Part shown: in pieces, positions 40,769-52,514 of the stretch | Position numbering within the stretch: position 1 is the stretch's first letter | Layout: the number at the start of each line of letters is the position of its first letter | DNA from: Actinomyces sp. 432 | Lineage (GTDB): Bacteria; Actinomycetota; Actinomycetes; Actinomycetales; Actinomycetaceae | Assembly: GCF_009930875.1 (NCBI RefSeq) | Contig: NZ_CP025249.1 | Span: 1,488,001 to 1,552,000 of the forward strand | Length of the DNA stretch: 64,000 bases | Direction of reading: 5' to 3' | Position numbers and translations under genes: made by a program | Notes under the pieces: generated by a model | The model's input: only the letters and a program-made list of their open reading frames with translations | The model's database searches: none | Told to the model about the DNA's origin: nothing

Positions 40769-41757
40769 TCACTACCATGACAACTCAGCCCGCTTCCGCC
40801 GCGGCTCTGTCCGGCACCGAGCAGCCGGTGCAACTGAACCGCCCCAAGCCGGTGCCGCGGCCCGGCACCTGGATCAGCGCCACGATCGTGGCCGTCCTGG
40901 GCGCGATGTTCATCCACGCACTGCTGACCAATGAGAAATTCCACTGGGGCACCGTGTGGTTCTTCTTCCGGGAGGTGCACGTGGTGCGGGCGGTCGGCTG
41001 GACACTGCTGCTGACCTTCCTGGCCATGCTGATAGGCATTGTGCTGGCGGTGACGACGGCGGTTATGCGGCAGTCCTCCAATCCGGTGCTGCGCGGCGTG
41101 TCACTGGCGTACCTGTGGTTCTTCCGCGGCACCCCGATCTACACCCAGCTGGTGTTCTGGGGGGCACTGTCGGCCCTGTACCAGTACCTGAGCCTGGGCA
41201 TTCCCTTCGGGCCGGAGCTGATCACCTTCCGCACCACCACGGTGTTCACCCCGTTCGTGGCGGCGGTGCTGGGGCTGGGCATCAACGAGGGCGCCTACCT
41301 GTCCGAGATCGTCCGCTCCGGCCTGGCCAGCGTGGACCCCGGCCAGACCGAGGCGGCCGGTGCACTGGGCATGAGCAAGGGGCAGATCCTGCGCCGTATC
41401 GTGCTGCCGCAGGCCATGCGGGTGATCGTGCCGCCCACCGGCAATGAGACGATCTCCATGCTTAAGACCACCTCGTTGGTACTGGCGGTCCCCTTCACCC
41501 TGGACCTGACCTTCGTCACCAACTCGTATGCCTCCTACACCTACCAGACGATTCCCCTGCTGATCGTGGCGGCCCTGTGGTACATCATCATCACCTCCAT
41601 CCTGATGGTGGGGCAGCACTTCATAGAGCGCTACTACGGCCGTGGCTTTGACGGCTCCTCCAAGTCCAGCGGCGGGCGGGGCATGTCCGCCCGCCAGCAG
41701 GCGATTCTCGACTCACACACCACCAAGGACTCCCCCTTCCTGGAGGTCACCCCATGA
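40765..41757 (+). CDS. Amino-acid ABC transporter permease (HisM type)
   Basis: A 330-residue inner-membrane permease with about five helices and the EAA loop [23 protein letters not shown] that contacts the ATPase. A cytosolic head of about 35 residues comes first and a hydrophilic tail of about 40 residues last. Start GTG at 40765 overlaps the upstream stop (GTGA); an in-frame ATG at 40777 is the alternative. Overlaps the ATPase gene by ATGA. Confidence 0.92.
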
Positions 41758-42566
41758 GCACATCGAACACGGCCGCGTCGGCGCAGTCCGGCGTCCCCAA
41801 GGTGCGTATTGCCGGCCTGCACAAGTTCTTCGGGGAGCTGCACGTGCTCAAGGGCATCGACCTGGTCGTCGAGCCCGGTTCGGTGACGGTTCTGGTGGGC
41901 CCCTCCGGGTCCGGCAAGTCCACGCTGCTGCGCTGCATCAATGAGCTGGAGACCATCGACGCCGGCCGCGTGTGGGTGGACGGAGAGCTGATCGGCATGC
42001 GTGAGGAGCAGCGCCCGGACGGCACCGTGCAGCTGCACGCCCTGACGGATAAGCAGCGCGCCGCGCAGCGTTCCAAGATCGGCATGGTCTTCCAGCGCTT
42101 CAACCTGTTCCCCCACATGACGGCTCTGGGCAATGTCATTGAGGCTCCGATCCATGTGCGGCACATGCCCAGGGAGCAGGCCCGTGCGCGCGGTGTGCAG
42201 CTGCTGGAGCGGGTGGGGCTGGGCGACCGGCTGGACCACTACCCCTCGCAGCTGTCGGGCGGGCAGCAGCAGCGGGTGGCGATCGCCCGGGCGCTGGCAA
42301 TGGATCCGGAGCTGATGCTCTTCGATGAGCCCACCTCCGCCCTGGACCCCGAGCTCGTGGGCGAGGTGCTGCAGGTGATGCAGGATTTGGCGGCCGACGG
42401 CATGACCATGGTGGTGGTCACCCACGAGATGGGCTTCGCCCGGGAGGTCGGCGATCAGCTGGTCTTCATGGACGGCGGCCTGGTGTGCGAGTCCGGCAAC
42501 CCGGTCGAGGTACTGGACCACCCCACTCAGGAGCGCACAAAGGCCTTCCTCGCGTCCGTATTGTGA
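41754..42566 (+). CDS. Amino-acid ABC transporter ATP-binding protein (GlnQ/HisP type)
   Basis: A 270-residue ATPase with Walker [11 protein letters not shown]-loop [11 protein letters not shown], signature [16 protein letters not shown], Walker [13 protein letters not shown] and the switch histidine in [13 protein letters not shown]. It powers the importer encoded by the two preceding genes, to which it is coupled by a 4-base overlap. An insertion of about 10 residues ([10 protein letters not shown]) lies before the Q-loop. Confidence 0.95.
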
Positions 42567-42592
42567 CCAGGTTGCGTGTGCCGCCCCTCCAG

Positions 42593-42624
42593 TTGTCACT
42601 ACAGTGATCTGCGACACCTTAATT
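42593..42624 (+). promoter_or_regulatory. Possible promoter/operator of the TRYPCO1-CHAT module
   Basis: TTGTCA (42593-42598) resembles a -35 box and TTAATT (42619-42624) an AT-rich -10, with a long spacer. An inverted repeat TCACT-AC-AGTGA spans 42596-42607. The 80-base gap after the transporter gene is the only place for a promoter. Weak evidence. Confidence 0.3.
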
Positions 42625-42646
42625 CCCACCGCTTCCCTGGAGCCTC

Positions 42647-42982
42647 ATGGACACGCAGCTGATCAACGGTCGTATTGGTGACCAAGAGGTCCTCATTGAG
42701 GTTGTTCGTGCCCCCGGACGCGAGGAGCTGGCCGGTGTGCGGGACCGTGCGGCGGATCTGTTCGAGCGGGCAGGGGACGTGATTGAGGCCGCAGCGCATC
42801 AGGCCGCAGATACGGTCCGGCGAGTGTGCGACCAGGCGGAGCCACCCGATGAGATCACGATCCAGATGGGACTGAGCCTGTCTACCACTGGCACTATCGT
42901 CGTCGCCTCCTCCACCACCACGGCTTCGCTGGCGGTATCCATGAAGTTCACTAACGCCTCCGGCAACCGGGGCGCCGTATGA
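42647..42982 (+). CDS. TRYPCO1-like small protein (trypsin-co-occurring domain)
   Basis: A 111-residue protein. A short beta-rich start (LINGRIGDQEVLIEVV) is followed by a helix (ADLFERAGDVIEAAAHQAADTVRRV) and the beta segments EITIQMGLSLSTTGTIVVAS and ASLAVSMKFTNA. This matches the compact CU044_2847-type domain, known as TRYPCO1 for its co-occurrence with trypsin-like proteases in predicted bacterial conflict systems. It overlaps the large downstream gene by 4 bases (ATGA), so the two are made together. Probable role: partner, sensor or substrate of the protease in the next protein; none is proven. Confidence 0.8.
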   Translation: MDTQLINGRIGDQEVLIEVVRAPGREELAGVRDRAADLFERAGDVIEAAAHQAADTVRRVCDQAEPPDEITIQMGLSLSTTGTIVVASSTTTASLAVSMKFTNASGNRGAV

Positions 42983-45900
42983 CGGCCGCCGCGGTGCCCG
43001 GTTACCTCGGGGTGGTTCTGAACGACTCCGATGAGGCTGTTGGCACCTGCTGGTTGCTGAGTCCCGGGAAAGTGGTCACCGCGGCGCATGTTCTGAGCGC
43101 CGTCGGCGTGAATCTGGTTCAAGCGCACGCCGCACTGGCGGTACCCGACGCCGCAGCACCCGCCCCCGAAGGGAACTCCCCCGCTCCGCAGATCCGCCTG
43201 CGTCAAGGCTTAAGTTCCACCGCGGCCACCCTTCGCGCTCGCGTCCTGCACCTAGACCTGGTTCTGGACCTGGCCCTGCTGGAGGTGGACGCCGCGTCTT
43301 GGTCGTCTGAGCCGGCACGGCTCGCAACCACCGCCGGGAAACAAGCCGGTGCCGCGGTACGCATTACCGGTGTCTCCAGGCGCCCCGATACCGCTGCCGA
43401 GCGCGTCGTCACTGCATCCAGCACCAGCGGCCGGTGGGATGGCTGGGATTACTACGACGACCGCACTTTTGAGCTACTGACTGTGAATGCCTCCGGCGCA
43501 CAGCCGGGAATGTCGGGAGCGCCGGTTGTGCTGGCCGAGGGCGGGGCCGTCATCGGGATGGTGACGGGGCGCTACAACTCCGCCGACGGCTGGAGCCGCG
43601 ACCTGGTGTTCGCCGTCGGAGCGGAGTCGCTGGTCAGGTCATGCGGCGGCTGGTTGGAGGTTGAGCTTGAGGGCGAGCCGCGTCCCACCGAGGCCTTGCA
43701 GGTGACGATGCGCCTGGGAACGGGCGACTCGGTGACCGTGTCCTGTCCGGGACTGAGCGTTGAAGCGAGCGTAGCGGTCGGCTCTAAGGCCGAACTGTTC
43801 TCTCCTGCGGAGCGCCTACGGCTGGCTCGGGCGGGCCGCCCACTGCTGGAGAACCACTCACCAGCCCAGGATCGGGACCGCACCCCACTGTTGGATGCGC
43901 TGGATGAGATGGGCGCAGCGCTCACGCGAGTCTTCCTGCCGGGCGAGGCCGGAGCAGCGCTCTCCCAAATCATTGCCAAGGCTGAGGCTCAGACGGTGCC
44001 CGTGGAGTTGGCGCTTGACGCGTCCGCACGTCAGGACCTGCGTGACCTCCCCTGGGAGGCCATGCACGTGCCGGGAACCGGGCAGCCATTGGCCCTGCAT
44101 CACCTGGTTACCTTCTTCCGCAAGGCGGTGGCCTCCCCCGCACCACGGCGCGTACCCGGGCCACTGCGGATCGTGGTGGCAATAGCCTCCCCGATTGAGG
44201 GCGGGGCCGGCACACTGGACTACCAGGCGGAGTTGCGGGCTATCACCACCGCCGTCCGCGAGGCGCGTAGCGCCAATGCGGGGGTCCGGATAGTCCAGTT
44301 CGCCACCACCGAGGAGATCCGGCGGGCTCTGGAACAGGAGAACCCGCACGTTCTGCACATCTCGGGTCACGGTGCCGCCGGCTTGCTCGTACTCGAGGAC
44401 GAGCGAGGTGCCGCCCGGCGCGTCAGCGCGCAGGAGCTCATTAAGGAGGCAATCCCGGCTGGCGGTATGCCGCCGCTGATTTGCCTGGCCGCCTGTGAGA
44501 CCAATGCGTCTGCGGATGCAGAGACTGCCTCCTTCGCCGATGAGCTTGTGGCTGCCGGGGCGCCGATTGTCATTGGCACGGAGGACGCGGTCTCTGACCA
44601 CTATGCCACCCTGGTGTTCTCCAAGGTTTACGCCGAGCTTGCTGCGGCGCCGCAGCCGGATCCTGTTTATGCCCTGGCCCAGGCGCGTCGCGAGCTCGGA
44701 CGGATATGCGCCGAAAGCTCGAATCCGCGCCATCAAACCGAGCAGGTGCTGGCGGGCTGGAGCGTGGTAACCGTCCAGGCCTCCAGCTGCGGGCGGCAGA
44801 TCACCGCGCCACCAGAGAAGAAAGCGCAGTCGTCGGTGCCGCTGGCTTCCGTGCGCGCGATGAACTCACTGCCCTCGTTGGGCACCGGATTCTTCGTGGG
44901 ACGACGCCGGGAGCAGCTGCGCGTGCCCCGATTGCTGCTCTCCGATACCCATGCCGGCGTGGTGTTTCACGGGATTGGAGGCATCGGAAAGTCAACACTG
45001 ACCGCAGAGGTCCTCCGCCGTACCGCTGAGCTGCAGCCGGTGCTTGTGGTTGATATGAGGGGCACGGCATTAGTTGAGGAGCTCTTCCAGCGCATCGTGT
45101 CCCGCCTGCGCATCAACTTCAGTGATCAGCTCACCGATCCCGAGGTGAACCAGTTGCTGGGACTGCTGGCCAACACCAAAATCGGTTGGTCCGAGCGCCT
45201 GGAACTGCTGCAAGGCACGCTGCTGCAACAACTTCCCCTCATCCTGGTACTGGACAACTTCGAGGACAATCTCACCTTCACCGACGGCGCCTATCGCCTG
45301 ACCGATCCCCTGCTTGCCGAGTTCCTGGCGCAGTTCCTGGCTGCTCCCGGCCGTGGCAGGCTGCTGGTGACCTGCCGTTACCGCTTCACCCTGCCCGAGG
45401 ACGCTACGACGGCGCTGGAGTGGATTGCCCTGGAGCCCTTGAGCTTTGCCGAGACCACTCACCTGGCCTGGTCCTTGCCGCAGCTGGATGCTCTGGATAT
45501 CTCCGATCTGCGTACCCTGTGGGCGGGTGTGGGCGGGCATCCCCGAACCCTGGAGACAGTGGATGCGCTGCTGAACCGGGGAGTGGGACGCCTGTCCCGA
45601 ATCACCACCGAGTTGCGTGGACGGCTCCGCAGCAGCCTTCCCGAAGGAGTTAGTCCGGAAGAGTGGCTGGCGGAAGGGCGCACGCTTGATGCCGCCATTG
45701 CCGACTCCGTCACGGTCGCGGCCGACGATGTGCTTCTCCCCCAGTTGCTGGAGACCCTGAGCAGCGACGCTCAACGCCTCCTGCTGGGTATGGCCGTCTT
45801 CCGTGAGCCGGTCAATGCAGCCGCAGTACTCTTCGCCGTCGGCGATGAGGTTCCTCCCGCCAAGGCCTCTGCCGACGAGGATGCCTCGCTCGGCCTTCCG

Positions 45901-46851
45901 ACGACAGATCTGCCGCTGCACGATCTGCTCCATGAGCTCGTTGGATCCACGCTGCTTACGGTCATCACGCTCGGGGACGGCGAGGACACCAGATTCTTCG
46001 TTCACCGTTGGCTGGCGGAGGCCCTGGAACGTGTTGCGGCTACCGCCCGCCCGAATGGCGAGATGGAAGAGCTTGCCGCCGAACGGCATCGGCGCGCCGC
46101 GGAGTACTGGCGTTGGAGCTACCGGATGCGCCCACAGAATGCCAGCTCTGGTCCCTTTGATGCGCACTACTTGCTCGAGGCACGGCACCACTACTCCCGC
46201 TCCGGCAACGCGGAGGCGGCCGATGACGTTGCGAACAGAGCTGGGAGTATTCTTCATACCATTGGCTGGTGGGATGAGGAGCTCTCCCTTGCGCATCAGC
46301 AGCTTCGCGGCAGCAACTTGTCCGACATCCGCCGCGCCGTCTGGGTCCACCAGCTCGGCATTCTCGCCCAGGACCGTGGCGACTACGGGCAGGCCGAGGA
46401 GCACTACCAGCACTCCCTCAAGATCGAGGAGCGGCTGGGCGACCAGGTCGGCATCGCCACCACCCACCACCAGCTCGGCATGCTCGCCCAGGCCCGCGGC
46501 GACTCGGCAGATGCGGTCATCCGCGCGTTTGGCGCCGCCATGGATCACGCAGAGCTATGTTCCACATCTGCACAAGTGCTGGCAATTGCAGTCTCTGTCG
46601 CTTCCCGCGCACAAGACCTTGGTGCACCTGAGCTCGCTGCTCGGGCGTATATGTTCCTGGTTCTTAGAGCACCGGAGAGCGCCAACCCCAAGGACACCCT
46701 CACGCAGGGACTATCCGGTTTGAAGTCGCTTTTCGCCGCGGGTCATCAGGCCAAAGTTAATGCGTTGCTCTCGCCGTTCCTGGCCGAGTTTTCACCTGAC
46801 GCTGCACGCTCCATTCGCAGCTTCATACAGGGCGAGTCAGACCCCGAGTAA
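42979..46851 (+). CDS. Trypsin-CHAT-STAND-TPR multidomain protein (predicted conflict/immunity effector)
   Basis: A 1290-residue protein with no signal peptide. Order: trypsin-like protease (about 1-225) with intact triad His37 (VVTAAHVL), Asp97 (LDLALL) and Ser179 (PGMSGAPVV); a linker of about 110 residues; a CHAT caspase-like protease (about 340-605) with intact His464 (HISGHGAAG) and Cys506 (CLAACETN); a STAND/NB-ARC-type NTPase (about 635-1000) with P-loop GIGGIGKST at 665-673, Walker B LILVLDN (Asp759), LLVTCRY and GGHP; then helical repeats including two clear TPRs (about 1118-1175). By family logic the NTPase-TPR part senses a trigger and releases the proteases. It follows a TRYPCO1 gene. 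A rare TTA leucine codon occurs at 45070. Confidence 0.88.
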   Translation: MTAAAVPGYLGVVLNDSDEAVGTCWLLSPGKVVTAAHVLSAVGVNLVQAHAALAVPDAAAPAPEGNSPAPQIRLRQGLSSTAATLRARVLHLDLVLDLALLEVDAASWSSEPARLATTAGKQAGAAVRITGVSRRPDTAAERVVTASSTSGRWDGWDYYDDRTFELLTVNASGAQPGMSGAPVVLAEGGAVIGMVTGRYNSADGWSRDLVFAVGAESLVRSCGGWLEVELEGEPRPTEALQVTMRLGTGDSVTVSCPGLSVEASVAVGSKAELFSPAERLRLARAGRPLLENHSPAQDRDRTPLLDALDEMGAALTRVFLPGEAGAALSQIIAKAEAQTVPVELALDASARQDLRDLPWEAMHVPGTGQPLALHHLVTFFRKAVASPAPRRVPGPLRIVVAIASPIEGGAGTLDYQAELRAITTAVREARSANAGVRIVQFATTEEIRRALEQENPHVLHISGHGAAGLLVLEDERGAARRVSAQELIKEAIPAGGMPPLICLAACETNASADAETASFADELVAAGAPIVIGTEDAVSDHYATLVFSKVYAELAAAPQPDPVYALAQARRELGRICAESSNPRHQTEQVLAGWSVVTVQASSCGRQITAPPEKKAQSSVPLASVRAMNSLPSLGTGFFVGRRREQLRVPRLLLSDTHAGVVFHGIGGIGKSTLTAEVLRRTAELQPVLVVDMRGTALVEELFQRIVSRLRINFSDQLTDPEVNQLLGLLANTKIGWSERLELLQGTLLQQLPLILVLDNFEDNLTFTDGAYRLTDPLLAEFLAQFLAAPGRGRLLVTCRYRFTLPEDATTALEWIALEPLSFAETTHLAWSLPQLDALDISDLRTLWAGVGGHPRTLETVDALLNRGVGRLSRITTELRGRLRSSLPEGVSPEEWLAEGRTLDAAIADSVTVAADDVLLPQLLETLSSDAQRLLLGMAVFREPVNAAAVLFAVGDEVPPAKASADEDASLGLPTTDLPLHDLLHELVGSTLLTVITLGDGEDTRFFVHRWLAEALERVAATARPNGEMEELAAERHRRAAEYWRWSYRMRPQNASSGPFDAHYLLEARHHYSRSGNAEAADDVANRAGSILHTIGWWDEELSLAHQQLRGSNLSDIRRAVWVHQLGILAQDRGDYGQAEEHYQHSLKIEERLGDQVGIATTHHQLGMLAQARGDSADAVIRAFGAAMDHAELCSTSAQVLAIAVSVASRAQDLGAPELAARAYMFLVLRAPESANPKDTLTQGLSGLKSLFAAGHQAKVNALLSPFLAEFSPDAARSIRSFIQGESDPE
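46351..46503 (+). repeat. Near-identical tandem TPR-coding repeat inside the CHAT-STAND gene
   Basis: Bases 46351-46383 and 46471-46503 encode HQLGILAQDRG and HQLGMLAQARG with almost identical codons (CACCAGCTCGGCAT, CTCGCCCAGG), 120 bases (40 codons) apart. Such DNA-level identity points to recent repeat expansion or contraction. Confidence 0.75.
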
Positions 46852-46890
46852 TCGCGTCCAGCAGCCTCGGCAATCAGCCCGACCGCCCAC

Positions 46891-47541
46891 CTACCGCACG
46901 GCGTCGGCCCGCCAGGTGCCCTCGTCCCAGTCGACCAGCCGCCAGCCTGACTCCGGGTCTCCCTCCACCACGCTGACTGCCGTGTTGCGCATGGGGTGGT
47001 TGGCGATCCAGGCCGGGTCCGCACCCCCGGCCGCGGCCGCCGCCAGCGCCACCCAAAGGCGCAGGATGGTGCCGTGCGCAACCAGCAGTGCAGTGCCGCC
47101 GGTGCGGGTGGAGTTGTAGATCTCCTCCACAACCGTATTGAACCGGGCGAAGGTATCCGCGCCGTCCTCGGGGCTGCCGGGGATGCGCGCCGCCGTGCGC
47201 CCCACCATCCAGGAGCGGGTGGTGTCCGTGTAGCAGGCCACCGAGCGCACATCGGTGTTCATCTCCATCTCACCGGCCAGCACCTCACGCAGCCCGGGCC
47301 GGATGCGGGCCGCCAGGCCCGTGGCCCGCTCAATCGGGGCAATCGTCTCCCGGGCGCGCTGGACCGGCGAGACCCACAGCGAGGAGATCGCATCCAGATC
47401 CCCGCTCGACTCCAGGCGCGCGGGCAGCAGGGAGGCCTGCTCCACGCCAACGGCGTCTAGTGGGTTACCGGGCAATGCCGTGTCCAAAGCGCCGGCAACA
47501 TTCGCGAAAGTTCGGCCGTGGCGGACAAGAAGAAGCTTCAC
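46891..47541 (-). CDS. Histidine-phosphatase family protein (phosphoglycerate-mutase-like)
   Basis: A 216-residue phosphatase with the catalytic RHG motif at its start (LLLVRHGRTFAN), the phosphate-binding LWVSPVQRARETI arginine region, the acid region LREVLAGEMEMN and the second histidine in LLVAHGTIL. Start GTG at 47541, set by the RHG motif position. Reading through the frameshifted glnE end would give a false fusion with this gene; I treat them as separate. Substrate unknown. Confidence 0.88.
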   Translation of the reverse strand: MKLLLVRHGRTFANVAGALDTALPGNPLDAVGVEQASLLPARLESSGDLDAISSLWVSPVQRARETIAPIERATGLAARIRPGLREVLAGEMEMNTDVRSVACYTDTTRSWMVGRTAARIPGSPEDGADTFARFNTVVEEIYNSTRTGGTALLVAHGTILRLWVALAAAAAGGADPAWIANHPMRNTAVSVVEGDPESGWRLVDWDEGTWRADAVR

Positions 47542-47596
47542 GGCGCCTATCCTGCCAGGCGCCTCGACCGCTCCGCGACGTCGGCGGACAACATGC

Positions 47597-50500
47597 TCAA
47601 GACCACGGGTAAGGTCCGGCGCCGCGAGGCCCGCTCCCCCGCCGCCCCCCGTTCGGGCGGCCAGGTGGTACCCGCCGTACCGTCTTACCAGGTGCGGGCA
47701 TGCGGGATCCCCGAGCGGCCGCCGCCCGGGGCGGGGTGGCGGGGCGGGCCGGGGCGGCATCACCGAACACCACGTGCTCAACCACGCGCCGCGCGTGCCT
47801 GGCCGTTCGGCGGTAAATGTCCTCAAGGTCCCGCTCGCTTCCGGCCGGGATACCCAGAAGCCGGGCAACCAGGCGGATCTCCCGCTGGTCGGTGGGCAGT
47901 ACCTGCACCCGCTGCCCACCCTCACGTCCGGTCCCGAGCACGGTGGCAGCACGCACCCGGGAGGCCAGCACCCAGGCGGCGGTGAGCCTGCCGGCATCAT
48001 CCACCCCAGTAGGCCCGCCTGGGTGGCGGCGGACAGAGCCTCCAGCGTCGAGGTGGTGCGCAGCCCCGGCACGCGGGCCGCCTGGGTCAGTTGCAGCACC
48101 TGGGCCGACCACTCGACGTCGGACAGGCCGCCGGGGCCCAGCTTGAGATGCCGGCTCGGATCGGCGCCGCGCGGCAGCCGCTCGGCCTCCATGCGGGCCT
48201 TCAGCCGCCGGATCTCCCGCAGGCCGGCCTCATCCAGCCCCTCCGGATTCCACCGCAGCGGGTTGATCAGCTCCTCAAAGCGCTCCCCCAAGCCCGTGTC
48301 GCCGGCGCAAGCGCGCGCACGCAGCAGGGCCTGCCGCTCCCACACCGAGCCCCAGCGCTCGTAATACTCGGCGTAGGACTCCAGGCTGCGGCTGACCGGC
48401 CCCTGGCGCCCCTCCGGACGCAGGCCGGTATCCACCACCAGGGAGTGCGGGCGCGCCTGGGCCAGCAGGCGGGCCACCCACTTGGCGACCGCCTCCGCCT
48501 CCGCCGCCGCCACATCGGCATCCGCCCCGGGGCGCGGCTCGTGCACGAACAGCACGTCAGCGTCGGAGGTGTAAGTGATCTCCCGTCCACCCAGCCTTCC
48601 CATGGCGATTATGGCGTGGTCGGCGGTGGCGGCCGGCCAGCTCCCACCCGCATCGGGCCCAGCGGCAACCGCGCCCTGCCCGTCGCGCTCGGCGATCACC
48701 AGACCCGTAGCGACAGTGAGGGCGGCACCCAGGACGGCGTCCGTGGCGTCGCCCAGAATCCGCGCGGTACGCGCCGGATCCACGCCGTCAAGGGAGTCCG
48801 CCAGGGCGGCGCGGATCAGCTCCCGGTTACGCACGCCCATGACCGCGCGTATCGCCTCCGCGGCCTGCCGCTCCAGGCCGACGGCGTCCGCAGCGGTGAA
48901 GGCACGACGTCGCAGCACCCGCTCGGTCTCAGCGCAAATCGCTCCGGGCGCGCGGGGCGTCAACTCGGCGTCGTCATCGAGCCAGGTGATCGACTCGGGG
49001 CGCTCGGCCAGCCGGTCGGTGGTCCAACGAGCCCCGGACAGCACCTGGCACAGGCGGCGGGCGGCCACCGGCGAGTCCCGCAGCATGGCCAGATACCAGT
49101 GGGATCCTCCGATGGACTCCGACAGGCGGCGGAAGGACAGCAGGCCGACGTCGGGATCGGGGCCCTGCCCGATCCAGCCGATGATCACCGGCAGCAGCTG
49201 GCGCTGGATGGCCGCACGCCGACTGACCCCCTCAGTGAGCGCCTGGATGTGGTGCAGGGCGCCGTCGGGGTCCAAGTAGCCGAAGGCCGCCAGCCGCTCC
49301 CGGGCGGCGTCCGGAGTCAGCGTCAGTTCCTCGGTGCTCAGGCTGGCCGCGACGCTCAGCAGCGGCCGGTAGTAGATCTCCTCGTGCAGCGCACGCACGC
49401 GGCGCCGCACCGAGTTGAACAGCTTGCGCACCGCGTCAGGATCGTGCAGCCGCCGACGGTCGATGCCCCGGCCGATGCTGCGCAAGTCTGTACGCCCCGC
49501 CGGCAGCATGTGGCTGCGACGCATACGCAGCAACTGGGTGCGGTGCTCCAGTAGCCGCAGCATCCGGTAGCAGTCGGCAAGCTCGGCCCCATCCGCCCGC
49601 CCCACATAACCAGCGGCCGAGAGCTGCGCCAGCGCATCCAGCGTGCTACGCGCGCGCAGCCGCTCGTCAACGCGCCCGTGGACCAGCTGGAGCAACTGCA
49701 CGGTGAACTCCACGTCCCGCAGGCCGCCGGGACCAAGCTTGATCCGCCGGTCATCAGGGCCCGAGTGCGCTGACTCGCTCTCCACACGGCGCCGCATTGA
49801 CCGGGCGTCATCCACGAAGTTCTCCCGCCGGCTAGCAGCCCACACCAGGGGTGCGACCCCGGCCTCATAGGCGGCGCCGAGGTCCCGATCACCGGCGCAG
49901 GCGCGCGCCTTGAGCAGCGCCTGGAACTCCCACGAGGAGGCCCAGCGCTGGTAGTAGGCCAGGTGCGAGTCCAAGGTTCGTACCAGCGCCCCGTCCTTGC
50001 CCTCGGGGCGCAGCGCCGTGTCCAGCGGCCACAGTGGCGGCTCGGTTCCGGAGGCGGAGGTGACGTGGGCGATCTCGGTGGCCAACTGCGTCCCGATCCG
50101 CACAATCTCCTCCCCCGCCTCCGTCGGCTCGCCCGCGCTCGGATCGGCCGGGCCGACCACGTAGACGACGTCGACATCCGATATGTAGTTCAGCTCCTGA
50201 GCACCAGCCTTGCCCATGGCAATGACCGCCATGGCCACCGCGTCCGCGTCGGGGCCGACAACTGCACGGGCAAGGACCAGTGCCGCCTGCAGCGCCGCAT
50301 CCGCCAACTCGCTCATGCGGCGCCCCACCACCGGCATGTGGGCCAGCGGAGTGGCTGAGGTCAGGTCATCGGCCACAACTGCAAGCAGGCGCTCCCGGTA
50401 GGCCACACGCAGCGCAGTCGTAGCCCGCTCTGCCACGGCAGCGGGTACCGGCGTGGCAGACCCGGCGAGCGCGCCGCACACTGCACCGGTCAGGGCCGCC

Positions 50501-51183
50501 CCGGGCGGGGGCTGGCCAGGTGCGTCCCAGGCGTGTTCGGGAGCAAGGGCCTCCAGGTGCTCAGGATGCGTGATCAGAAAGTCGCCGAGAGCCTCGGAGG
50601 CGCCCAGCACCGCCAGCAGGCGGCGCAGGTGAGTCCGCAAGCACCCGGGCTGAGCCTCAGGGGAGGAGCCGGAGGGGCCGCGTCCACCGGCAACCTCGTC
50701 GCCGCCGCGCAAGGCGGGCGAGGCGGTATCGGCGGTGTCGGCGGTGTCGGCGCCATCGTGTGAGTCATCGGCCCGCAGCAGGGCGCGCAGCATGCGTGCG
50801 GGCTGGGCCACCCGAGTCTGCCCGGCGGCATCCCCGCCAATGACCGTGCAGGCCTCAGCCAGTCGCACCAGGGCTAGCACCGCGAGGTCGGGATTCGCGG
50901 TACTGCCGAGCTCATCCACAAGGCGGGCGCGCACAGGGTCGAGTGCGGGCAGTTCCCCCTGCGTGCCCTTCCTAGAAACCGTCGGCGCGGCCGGCAGGAA
51001 GGGGTCTAGCGCCGGGTCGGTGATAAGGCCGTAGGCGCGCTCCACCTCCGTGAACCCGGCCCAGAGGAGCCGGGCCCGGGTACTGGGCCAGCGGTCATGT
51101 CTGCGGGAGGCGGGGCCGCCTGCCGGCGCCCCGGGCCCCGGCAGGGGCTTGCGCTCACTCCCGCTTCCACTATTTGAAGGCAT
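47597..51183 (-). pseudogene. glnE: Glutamine synthetase adenylyltransferase/deadenylase, frameshifted near the C-terminus
   Basis: A bifunctional enzyme that adds AMP to, and removes it from, GlnA. Two nucleotidyltransferase domains are visible: the first with NYISDVDVVYVVG and LRPEGKDGALVR, the second with TYTSDADVLFVHE and LRPEGRQGPVSRS, each followed by a GPGGLxDVEF/W block. The frame breaks in the four-C run (plus strand) at 48004-48007, after TQAGLLG; the next frame continues VDDAGRLTAAWVLASRVR and LPTDQREIRLVARLLG, the normal GlnE end. One added base gives a GlnE of about 1195 residues, with an odd 50-residue tail after HVVFGD. The ATG at 51183 overlaps the glnA2 stop by one base (TGATG). 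Confidence 0.9.
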
Positions 51184-52514
51184 CACAGGCGCGGGAAGAA
51201 CTGGCTGATCTCGAAGTCGGTCACCTGGGCGTCGTAAGCCAGGTACTCGCGGCGCTTGTTGCGGCGGAAGAACTCGAAGGCATCCTCCCCCAGGGTGTCC
51301 GCCACCAGGTCCGACTCGGCCATGGCGGCCACGGCGCTCTTGAGCGAGGTGGGCAGCGCGCCAATGCCGAGCGACTTGCGCTCCAGCTCGGACAGCGCCC
51401 AGACATCGTCCTCGGCCTCGGCAGGCAGCTCGTAGCCCTCCTCGATACCCTTCAGGCCGGCTGCGAGGATCACGGCGAAGGCCAGGTAGGGGTTGGCGGA
51501 GGAGTCGATGCCGCGGAACTCGATGCGGGCGGACTGGGCCTTGCCGGGCTTGTGCATGGGCACGCGCACCAGGGCGGAGCGGTTGTTGTGGCCCCAGCAC
51601 ACGTAGCTGGGGGCCTCGTCGCCGCCCCACAGGCGCTTGTAGGAGTTGACGTGCTGGTTGGTAACTGCGCAGATCTCGGTGGCGTGGTGCAGCAGGCCCG
51701 CAATGAAGGCGCGCCCCGTGGCGGACAGCTGGTACTGCCCGGCCGGGTCGTGGAATGCGTTGCGGTCCCCCTCGAACAGTGAGAAGTGAGTGTGCATCCC
51801 GCTTCCGGGCTGGTCGATGAAGGGCTTGGGCATGAAGGTCGCCTGGCAGCCCTCCTGCAGGGCGACCTCCTGCACGACTGCCCGGAAGGTCATGATGTTG
51901 TCCGCCATGGACAGGGCGTCGGCGAAGCGCAGATCGATCTCATTCTGGCCGGGGCCGCCCTCGTGGTGGGAGAACTCCACGGAGATGCCCATCTGCTCAA
52001 GCATGAGGATGGCGTGGCGGCGGAACTCGTGGGCCGTGCCGCCGGGCACGTGATCGAAGTAGCCGGCGTAGTCGGTGGGGATGATCCGGCCGTCGCTGTT
52101 GCGGTCCACCAGGTAAAACTCGATCTCGGGGTGCACGTAGCAGGTGAAGCCGGCGTCGGCAACACGGGCCAGCTGGCGCTCGAGCACGGCGCGAGGGTCC
52201 GTGCGTGCGGGCTCACCGTCCGGGGTGAGCACGTCGCAGAACATACGGGCGACGCTGTTGACCTCCTCCCGCCACGGCAGCATCTGGAAGGTGGAGGGGT
52301 CCGGGGACAGCAGCATGTCCGACTCGAATACGCGGGTCAGCCCCTCAATGGCGGAGCCGTCGAAGCCGATCCCCTCCTCGAAGGCACCCTCTACCTCCGC
52401 CGGCGCGATCGCCACCGACTTGAGCTGACCGAGCACGTCGGTGAACCACAGGCGGATGAAGCGGATATCGCGCTCCTCAATGGCGCGAAGCACGTATTCC
52501 TGCTGCTTGTCCAT
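51183..52514 (-). CDS. glnA2: Glutamine synthetase, second copy (GlnA2 type)
   Basis: A 443-residue GS of the shorter I-alpha-like group. Signatures are FTDVLGQLKSVAIAP, GIGFDGSAIEGL, EIEFYLV, GPGQNEIDLRF, FMPKPFIDQPGSGMHTHFSLFE and the C-terminal NPYLAFAVILAAG. The start MDKQQEYVLRAIEERDIRF at 52514 is the usual family start. I cannot find a clear adenylylation tyrosine like that of the GlnA at 38295. It is followed directly by glnE, the same order as in mycobacteria. Confidence 0.93.
   Translation of the reverse strand: MDKQQEYVLRAIEERDIRFIRLWFTDVLGQLKSVAIAPAEVEGAFEEGIGFDGSAIEGLTRVFESDMLLSPDPSTFQMLPWREEVNSVARMFCDVLTPDGEPARTDPRAVLERQLARVADAGFTCYVHPEIEFYLVDRNSDGRIIPTDYAGYFDHVPGGTAHEFRRHAILMLEQMGISVEFSHHEGGPGQNEIDLRFADALSMADNIMTFRAVVQEVALQEGCQATFMPKPFIDQPGSGMHTHFSLFEGDRNAFHDPAGQYQLSATGRAFIAGLLHHATEICAVTNQHVNSYKRLWGGDEAPSYVCWGHNNRSALVRVPMHKPGKAQSARIEFRGIDSSANPYLAFAVILAAGLKGIEEGYELPAEAEDDVWALSELERKSLGIGALPTSLKSAVAAMAESDLVADTLGEDAFEFFRRNKRREYLAYDAQVTDFEISQFFPRL

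What the first reader, a model, noticed from the sequence alone, without database searches (positions are those of the whole stretch)
42647..46851. TRYPCO1 + trypsin-CHAT-STAND-TPR two-gene module, a candidate abortive-infection or programmed-death system
Seen: one 1290-residue protein carries two protease modules with intact catalytic residues (His37/Asp97/Ser179 and His464/Cys506), an intact P-loop NTPase and TPRs, and overlaps by 4 bases a TRYPCO1-like partner. Known: CHAT and trypsin domains joined to STAND NTPases are predicted NTP-dependent conflict systems. Inference: ligand sensing by the TPR/STAND part releases proteolysis, perhaps by a trypsin-to-CHAT cascade within one chain. Having both proteases in one chain with a TRYPCO1 partner is unusual.
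Basis: partly seen in the sequence, partly recalled or inferred. Interest (0 to 1): 0.9.

Follow-up and report, generated by a model that had tools for sequence, protein, structure and literature searches.

The report
Bacterial immune-like receptor with two proteases
An Actinomyces genome carries a two-gene, probably defensive system in which one large protein joins two protease domains to an ATP-driven switch and a repeat sensor, beside a small partner protein; related receptors carry a TIR domain where this one has its first protease.

Summary
ORF 42647-42982 is Trypco1 (PF19493); ORF 42979-46851 (1290 aa) is trypsin-CHAT-STAND-TPR with its catalytic and nucleotide-binding residues in place, and the model (pLDDT 82) supports the folds. 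It is accessory: full length in 6 of 49 Actinomyces genomes, always at one site; 40 of 47 readable sites lack it. Relatives with the same order occur sparsely in Nocardia, Micromonospora, Phytomonospora, Solirubrobacter and MAGs. The constant part is CHAT-STAND-TPR; the N-terminal slot is exchangeable: TIR/SEFIR in 11 of 15 non-trypsin relatives, no Pfam match in 4, trypsin in one clade of 18. Trypco1 is directly upstream in 14 of those 18 and in none of the 14 assessable others. Most likely this is an NLR-like conflict receptor whose sensing triggers assembly and proteolysis, with Trypco1 as regulator or substrate of the trypsin. A general trypsin-to-CHAT cascade is not supported. The TPR array, 5-14 units in 11 of 12 other arrays counted, is one unit plus a degenerate one here. 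No function was tested. New variant of a known kind.

The parts
42647..42982 (+). trypco1: 111-aa Trypco1 protein (PF19493 / NF041216), small partner gene
   Evidence: model of beta-hairpin, helix, beta-hairpin at mean pLDDT 65.6
42979..46851 (+). 1290-aa trypsin-CHAT-STAND-TPR protein
42979..42982 (+). ATGA overlap of the two genes; an ATGA/GTGA overlap is also seen in 8 of the 10 directly adjacent pairs examined
43042..43560 (+). trypsin-like domain, residues 22-194 (His37, Asp97, Ser179)
   Evidence: triad invariant in 14 of 14 and in 18 of 18 trypsin forms
43963..44712 (+). CHAT cysteine protease domain, residues 329-578 (His464, Cys506)
   Evidence: dyad kept in 32 of 33 sequences
44872..46038 (+). 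STAND NTPase region, residues about 632-1020 (P-loop Lys671, Walker B Asp759)
   Evidence: boundaries set by me for the profile
46354..46473 (+). the single canonical 40-residue TPR unit, residues 1126-1165
46474..46848 (+). degenerate second TPR unit and C-terminal region, residues 1166-1290
41754..42566 (+). left flank of the fixed site: amino-acid ABC transporter ATPase gene (name by eye)
46891..47520 (-). right flank of the fixed site: phosphoglycerate-mutase-like gene, followed by glnE and glnA2 (names by eye; upper end approximate)

Best explanation
An NLR-like (STAND) intracellular receptor used in conflict with invaders, most likely phages. At rest the STAND core is ADP-bound and held shut with the help of the TPR part. 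A ligand bound by the TPR face opens it; ATP binding assembles an oligomer that brings many trypsin and CHAT domains together. CHAT is the constant protease of the core; the N-terminal slot holds an exchangeable effector, here a trypsin where relatives have TIR. Trypco1, encoded by the overlapping gene, works on the trypsin, either as the inhibitor that keeps it off or as the pro-effector it cleaves. Proteolysis then stops growth or kills the infected cell. Shown here by computation: domains, conserved residues, gene coupling, exchange of the N-terminal domain, presence/absence at one site, and TPR variation concentrated on the expected ligand face. Inferred: ligand sensing, oligomerisation, both protease activities, the role of Trypco1, and any defence or death outcome.
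For: Domains and folds. Residues kept: trypsin triad 18 of 18 trypsin forms, CHAT dyad 32 of 33, P-loop Lys and Walker B Asp 33 of 33. N-terminal exchange: TIR/SEFIR in 11 of 15 non-trypsin relatives; trypsin forms one clade at 100/100; TPR matches in 10 of 10 non-trypsin C-termini scanned of 15, one of them (L179) below the cut-off. Trypco1 goes with the trypsin: directly upstream in 14 of 18 trypsin forms and in 0 of 14 others with upstream DNA held; elsewhere it precedes trypsin-nSTAND1-WD40 and trypsin-VMAP-C genes; trypsin and Trypco1 tree distances agree (Mantel r 0.95, 0 of 2000 permutations as high). Both genes in exactly the same 6 of 49 genomes, at one site; 5 changes on the flank tree, and G010 has it while its sister G041 lacks it. 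TPR units are more variable at five positions of the expected ligand face: 1.21 against 0.50 bits, 13 of 20,000 permutations as high, same direction in 11 of 11 arrays. Precedent: in Hachiman and AVAST a trypsin fused to the immune protein works with a pro-nuclease encoded just upstream (PMC12799240, passages).
Against: No functional data. The Actinomyces neighbours are the same metabolic genes as in the window, not a recognisable defence island; I ran no defence-gene search on neighbours. No match on 72,556 plasmid records at E 1e-20, and one partial match (23% of the query, 27% identity) on 50,697 phage records. PADLOC gave only partial domain matches. This copy's TPR array is nearly gone, so this allele may sense nothing. 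Four of 18 trypsin forms (L129, L165, L167, L173) lack an adjacent Trypco1, and two Trypco1 loci (L133, L143) have CHAT without trypsin, so the coupling is not strict. The single most variable TPR position (25 of the unit) is not one of the five, and those five vary in TPRs generally (recalled). The Trypco1 model is weak and matched no fold. Presence is not clustered on the species tree beyond chance (114 of 500 shuffles as low).
Confidence: 0.6

Rival explanations
1. Trypco1 is a proteolytically activated pro-effector (for example membrane-active), not a regulator: the trypsin, once clustered by the STAND core, cuts Trypco1 and the product kills the cell, as proteases do for bacterial gasdermins (recalled) and for the HamM pro-nuclease.
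For: Gene order (small gene directly upstream of a trypsin-fused switch) is that of the nuclease-protease pairs in PMC12799240; Trypco1 is shared by trypsin systems with different switches; tree distances agree. The model has a long C-terminal beta-hairpin; five of the 50 listed, non-significant Foldseek hits are pore-forming toxins (E 3.2-4.7).
Against: The fold is low-confidence and unmatched; I saw no conserved cleavage site in the alignment; the protein has only 111 aa. An amphipathic sheet packed on a helix fits an ordinary soluble domain equally well.
Confidence: 0.35
2. Two-stage protease cascade inside one chain, CHAT releasing the trypsin (or trypsin activating CHAT).
For: Both active sites conserved; low-confidence stretches flank CHAT (residues 288-301 and 614-625). 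CHAT is constant while the N-terminal domain changes, which suits a releasing role for CHAT.
Against: Low pLDDT linkers between domains are common, and the model has six other such stretches. Trypsin-to-CHAT order is contradicted as a general rule by 15 CHAT-intact relatives without trypsin. L173 has lost both CHAT residues yet keeps the trypsin triad, so CHAT is not always needed, unless that copy is decaying.
Confidence: 0.25
3. A toxin-antitoxin-like selfish pair: Trypco1 as antitoxin of a toxic protease, kept by addiction rather than by defence.
For: Small upstream gene overlapping a large, potentially toxic one; patchy presence.
Against: Absence at the same site in many close relatives, including the sister species of a carrier, argues against strong addiction; sensor and switch would be superfluous.
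Confidence: 0.12
4. A regulator of nitrogen metabolism or development that happens to sit in the glutamine-synthetase region.
For: The neighbours are glnA-like, amino-acid ABC transporter and glnE-like genes (names by eye); TPR-STAND proteins such as MalT and AfsR regulate transcription (titles and starts of abstracts).
Against: No DNA-binding domain in Pfam; 40 of 47 readable sites lack it with the metabolic genes in place; of nine flanking proteins searched around 12 copies in other genera, only a generic 31%-identical ABC ATPase matched, in one.
Confidence: 0.05

Closest known systems
Trypco1-trypsin conflict systems (VMAP ternary systems), Kaur et al. 2020, PMC7159879 (passages and first part of section 9)
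   Same: Trypco1 gene beside a trypsin that is fused to another component; predicted NTP-dependent conflict system
   Different: No VMAP-C, MoxR or vWA domain in the two proteins; the trypsin is joined to CHAT, STAND and TPR. Their Figure 4C legend speaks of mutual exclusivity of Trypco-trypsin and hydrolase-caspase pairings; here a trypsin and a CHAT domain (caspase-like, recalled) share a chain
TIR/SEFIR-CHAT-STAND-TPR proteins (11 relatives found here)
   Same: Homologous CHAT-STAND core; TPR at the C-terminus in the 8 of 11 scanned, one of them below cut-off
   Different: N-terminal TIR instead of trypsin; no Trypco1 upstream where upstream DNA is held
AVAST type 1 (Avs1a) and other nuclease-protease pairs, PMC12799240 (passages)
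   Same: Partner gene directly upstream of a trypsin fused to an immune protein
   Different: Partner there is a metallo-beta-lactamase-fold pro-nuclease; no CHAT mentioned (0 occurrences)
Trypsin-nSTAND1-WD40 with Trypco1
   Same: Trypco1 plus trypsin plus STAND plus repeats
   Different: Different STAND family, WD40 repeats, no CHAT; their trypsins fall outside this clade
SAVED-CHAT (PDB 8tl0) and Csx29 (TPR-CHAT)
   Same: CHAT protease under a sensor; 8tl0 is the best sequence match in the PDB (E 9.9e-10)
   Different: CRISPR-linked, activated by a cyclic nucleotide or target RNA (recalled; listing of PMC10028731), no STAND or trypsin
PH0952 / MalT, STAND with TPR sensor, PMC6468293 (abstract and outline)
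   Same: Best structural match of the model by E-value (6mfv, 7e-14)
   Different: No protease domains; the superposition is poor (TM by target 0.27), so the domain arrangement differs or is not predicted

Membership tests
Trypco1 family (PF19493) | Sequence match above curated cut-off | tested here: met
   53.5 bits against 24.6; NF041216 50.3 against 23
Trypco1 family (PF19493) | Neighbouring trypsin | tested here: met
   Overlapping gene encodes Trypsin_2
CHAT proteases (PF12770) | Profile match with His/Cys dyad | tested here: met
   75.9 bits against 24; His464 and Cys506
CHAT proteases (PF12770) | Proteolytic activity | not testable with these tools
   needs purified protein
STAND NTPases | Pfam match above cut-off | tested here: not met
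   AAA_16 20.5 of 32.6, NB-ARC 18.5 of 23.5, nSTAND6 19.3 of 27.7 bits; in relatives AAA_16 passes its cut-off in 4 of 7 scanned (L165, L172, L173, L177)
STAND NTPases | P-loop, Walker B and STAND fold | tested here: met
   Lys671 and Asp759 in 33 of 33; Foldseek to 6mfv and CED-4
STAND NTPases | NTP-driven oligomerisation | not testable with these tools
   needs purified protein
VMAP ternary system | VMAP-C, MoxR and vWA components | tested here: not met
   No such domain in the two proteins; flanks are transporter, PGM-like and glnE-like genes (names by eye)
AVAST type 1 | Upstream metallo-beta-lactamase-fold nuclease | tested here: not met
   Upstream gene is Trypco1
Known defence system in PADLOC 2.0.0 | Match to a system's proteins | tested here: not met
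   Six partial domain hits for the large protein, none for Trypco1
Anti-phage system | Protection against phage | not testable with these tools
   needs plating assay

The most novel reading that the evidence does not exclude
A bacterial receptor lineage swapped its TIR effector for a two-gene trypsin-Trypco1 cassette, giving a single-chain two-protease receptor in which the constant CHAT protease licenses the trypsin and the trypsin fires Trypco1 as a new class of proteolytically activated killer protein, while a fast-changing array of similar TPR units tunes what is recognised, as repeat number does in fungal NLR allorecognition genes.
Probability: 0.2. Interest if true: 0.85.

Novelty: new variant of a known kind. 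Interest (0 to 1): 0.58.

Why it matters
It defines a coherent family (18 trypsin forms in one clade) and indicates by phylogeny that the N-terminal domain of a CHAT-STAND receptor is exchangeable, with Trypco1 accompanying the trypsin. That turns the open question of what Trypco1 does into a direct two-gene test, and gives a natural presence/absence series at one chromosomal site, including a sister-species pair, for testing defence.

Tried and rejected
Housekeeping role: rejected as the main reading by 6 of 49 presence. Recent insertion in Actinomyces: not favoured; in the window genome, G024 and G010 the module is about as diverged as its upstream flank (83-96% against 84-91% DNA identity by segment), the Actinomyces copies form one clade and share one site. 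The 47-genome tree needs 5 changes (4-5 over bootstrap trees) but does not say how many are losses; it has long-branch warnings, and its glnE rows may hold out-of-frame pieces. The three copies show mosaicism (window-G010 94-98% at 43326-44326). Diversifying selection on TPR units: only moderate; pN/pS at the five positions is 1.23 pooled against 0.70 elsewhere, above 1 in 5 of 10 arrays, equal to the rest in G033, and degenerate last units were not all removed. Trypco1 fold search: nothing at E under 0.001. Promoter scan: none in 41600-47000. Collapsed TPR array as an assembly error: cannot be excluded without reads; the window genome also shows an apparent frameshift in glnE.

Limits and dropped rows. 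The 84,980-species scan used two short peptide patterns, so it is not exhaustive. From the 33-row tree I left out L159 and L160 (no Pfam match before CHAT and incomplete) and L184-L187 (STAND part only); L092-L096 are the same genes as L158-L162; L031 and L034 are represented by L163 and L164 (same genomes). L165 has no Trypsin_2 match at E 0.001 in Pfam; it counts as trypsin by my family profile and triad. L181 runs out of frame after about residue 855; it was trimmed for A5, not for A3. In one search, 11 of 13 arrays were used (window and G030 had under 4 units at the cut-off). My first Trypco1 profile missed some Trypco1 genes that Pfam finds, so I repeated the adjacency test with a wider one; L097 holds one upstream base and is not assessable, L091 holds 269. 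Of 28 Trypco1 places (23 profile hits, 5 approximate positions), 26 gave a downstream ORF and 20 of these were scanned: 13 list a trypsin, 2 (L144, L150) show WD40 with only the best 25 families listed, 2 have CHAT alone, 3 have no hit (ORF choice may be wrong).

Full report
What is there. The two ORFs are as described: 42647-42982 (111 aa) and 42979-46851 (1290 aa), overlapping by four bases. Pfam places Trypco1, Trypsin_2, CHAT and TPR_12 above their curated cut-offs, the STAND NTPase only below them. The AlphaFold2 model of residues 1-1191 (22 aligned sequences, mean pLDDT 82, pTM 0.72) matches by Foldseek a TPR-STAND protein (6mfv, E 7e-14), CED-4 (2.7e-10), SAVED-CHAT (8tl0, 2.3e-9) and HtrA/Deg-type proteases (about 3e-9 and weaker; the 50 best of 568 matches at E 0.001 were listed). 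These are domain-level matches; superposition on 6mfv as a whole is poor (TM by target 0.27). His37, Asp97, Ser179, His464, Cys506, Lys671 and Asp759 are invariant in the six Actinomyces copies.

Distribution in the genus. Of 49 Actinomyces genomes (own included; the genus name comes from named records that match G010 and G005), 7 match the large protein: 6 over its length and G014 in the TPR part only. Trypco1 occurs in exactly the same 6. All 7 lie at one site, between an amino-acid ABC transporter ATPase gene and a PGM-like gene followed by glnE and glnA2 (names by eye; in G005 the site is split over two contigs). The ATPase was found in 47 of 49 genomes. In the 40 without the module the two flanks are adjacent: 22-221 bases apart in 36, and 809-1366 bases in 4 with other ORFs between them, by eye methyltransferase-like in three and transposase-like in one. 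On a 47-genome tree of three flanking proteins the module needs 5 changes; G010 carries it and its sister G041 (fork 100/97) does not. G014 keeps a TPR-only ORF there. In the family (213 genomes, 36 genera) only this genus has a match at E 1e-60.

Relatives elsewhere. A pattern scan of one genome per species (84,980 species) gave 25 loci; 13 match from the trypsin domain on: two Actinomyces, six Nocardia loci from four species, one each from Solirubrobacter, Micromonospora and Phytomonospora, and two MAGs. A further trypsin form is G307. The pair in G700 is the same MAG record as L171. Some of these run off their contigs before the TPR part ends. Nine proteins from the Actinomyces flanks were searched around 12 of the non-Actinomyces copies: one generic ABC ATPase match only.

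The N-terminal slot is exchangeable. Other relatives share the CHAT-STAND core but not the trypsin. Pfam finds TIR or SEFIR in the N-terminal slot of 11 (L091, L097, L098, L099, L158, L161, L162, L179, L180, L182, L183) and nothing there in 4 (L174, L175, L176, L178). TPR follows in all 10 C-termini scanned of these 15 (8 TIR forms, 2 others), below the cut-off in L179. In a tree of the CHAT-STAND core of 33 sequences the 18 trypsin forms are one clade (100/100) and the Actinomyces copies one clade inside it (100/100); with midpoint rooting the TIR forms lie outside. The simplest history is one change of effector, from TIR to trypsin, but the root is not proven. The CHAT dyad is kept in 32 of 33 whatever the N-terminal domain; the exception L173 has lost both residues. 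The trypsin triad is kept in 18 of 18 trypsin forms, and the P-loop Lys and Walker B Asp in 33 of 33.

Trypco1 goes with the trypsin. With a profile of 25 Trypco1 domains it lies directly upstream in 14 of 18 trypsin forms (all six Actinomyces; L166, L168, L169, L170, L171, L172, L177, L181) and not in L129, L165, L167, L173. Among the 15 others it is upstream in none; L097 holds no upstream DNA, so 0 of 14. L178 has one downstream, and L167 and L173 have one over 2 kb downstream. The ATGA/GTGA overlap recurs in 8 of 10 pairs. In a phylum sample (19 of 396 genomes, own included) Trypco1 precedes trypsin-nSTAND1-WD40 and trypsin-VMAP-C genes; two loci have CHAT without trypsin. Trypsin and Trypco1 trees each give this family as one clade (100/100 and 99/97), and their distances agree (Mantel r 0.95 over 14 pairs, 0.84 over 25, none of 2000 permutations as high); a shared operon history alone would also produce this.

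The TPR array. Relatives carry similar 40-residue units: 11 in G024, 14 in G033, 5 to 8 in nine others, and 3 before an assembly gap in G010; mean DNA identity between units is 0.63-0.91. The window copy has one canonical unit plus a degenerate one (DNA identity between the two 0.43). Within arrays, five positions that correspond to the ligand-facing positions of canonical TPRs (numbering recalled) are more variable than the rest: 1.21 against 0.50 bits, 13 of 20,000 permutations as high, and higher in 11 of 11 arrays. Against this: the most variable position of all is not among the five. The pN/pS ratio at the five is 1.23 pooled against 0.70 elsewhere, but above 1 in only 5 of 10 arrays. These positions vary in TPRs generally, so this supports a binding role without proving selection. 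Repeat-number changes in similar-unit arrays recall fungal NLR allorecognition genes (PMC12222747, PMC2873952: search listing only).

Mechanism. From the abstract of PMC6468293: STAND proteins rest closed with ADP and multimerise in the ATP form once the inducer binds. From PMC12799240 (passages): a trypsin fused to an immune protein cleaves a pro-nuclease encoded by a typically upstream gene, in Hachiman and AVAST. By analogy the present protein senses a ligand with its TPR face, assembles, and turns on the trypsin, with Trypco1 as its substrate or regulator. CHAT, being constant, is more likely the core's own protease than a downstream target of trypsin. All steps beyond sequence, fold and gene order are inference.

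Novelty. Trypco1 beside trypsin in conflict systems is known (PMC7159879, passages and part of section 9; PMC10907252, passages). PMC7159879 describes Trypco-trypsin and hydrolase-caspase pairings as mutually exclusive in the MoxR-vWA ternary systems; here a trypsin and a CHAT domain sit in one chain. I did not find this architecture, or the TIR/trypsin exchange, in the listings of searches of the held library or in the passages read; supplements and most subscription papers were not seen, so it may be listed somewhere. I rate it a new variant of a known kind.

Noticed in passing
window 46891-51630 (-): By eye, the glnE-like frame runs into the PGM-like frame (1579-aa ORF) while the glnE C-terminus is read in another frame (ORF 47597-48112, -): an apparent frameshift near 48100, real or a sequencing error.
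   Followed up: partly
L037 (G014), between the ATPase and PGM genes: A TPR-array-only open frame (577 codons) sits at the module's site without trypsin, CHAT or STAND: a remnant or a free sensor arm.
   Followed up: partly
L173 5824-10404: The Nocardia tenerifensis copy has lost both CHAT catalytic residues but keeps the trypsin triad and P-loop.
   Followed up: partly
L133 and L143: Trypco1 genes next to a CHAT gene with no trypsin, so Trypco1 is not bound to trypsin alone.
   Followed up: partly
L129 2-3000 (-) and 13580-18580 (+): One region (G307) holds a Trypco1 plus trypsin-nSTAND1-WD40 pair about 10 kb from a trypsin-CHAT-STAND gene that has no Trypco1 of its own.
   Followed up: partly
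L051, L055, L056 (sites in G011, G044, G026) and L063 (G013): The same intergenic site holds, by eye, a methyltransferase-like ORF in three genomes and a transposase-like remnant in one, so the site may take up other genes.
   Followed up: no
L166 1966-2718: An IstB-like gene of an insertion sequence (by eye) lies upstream of one Nocardia copy; the same contig holds a second copy about 35 kb away (L169).
   Followed up: no
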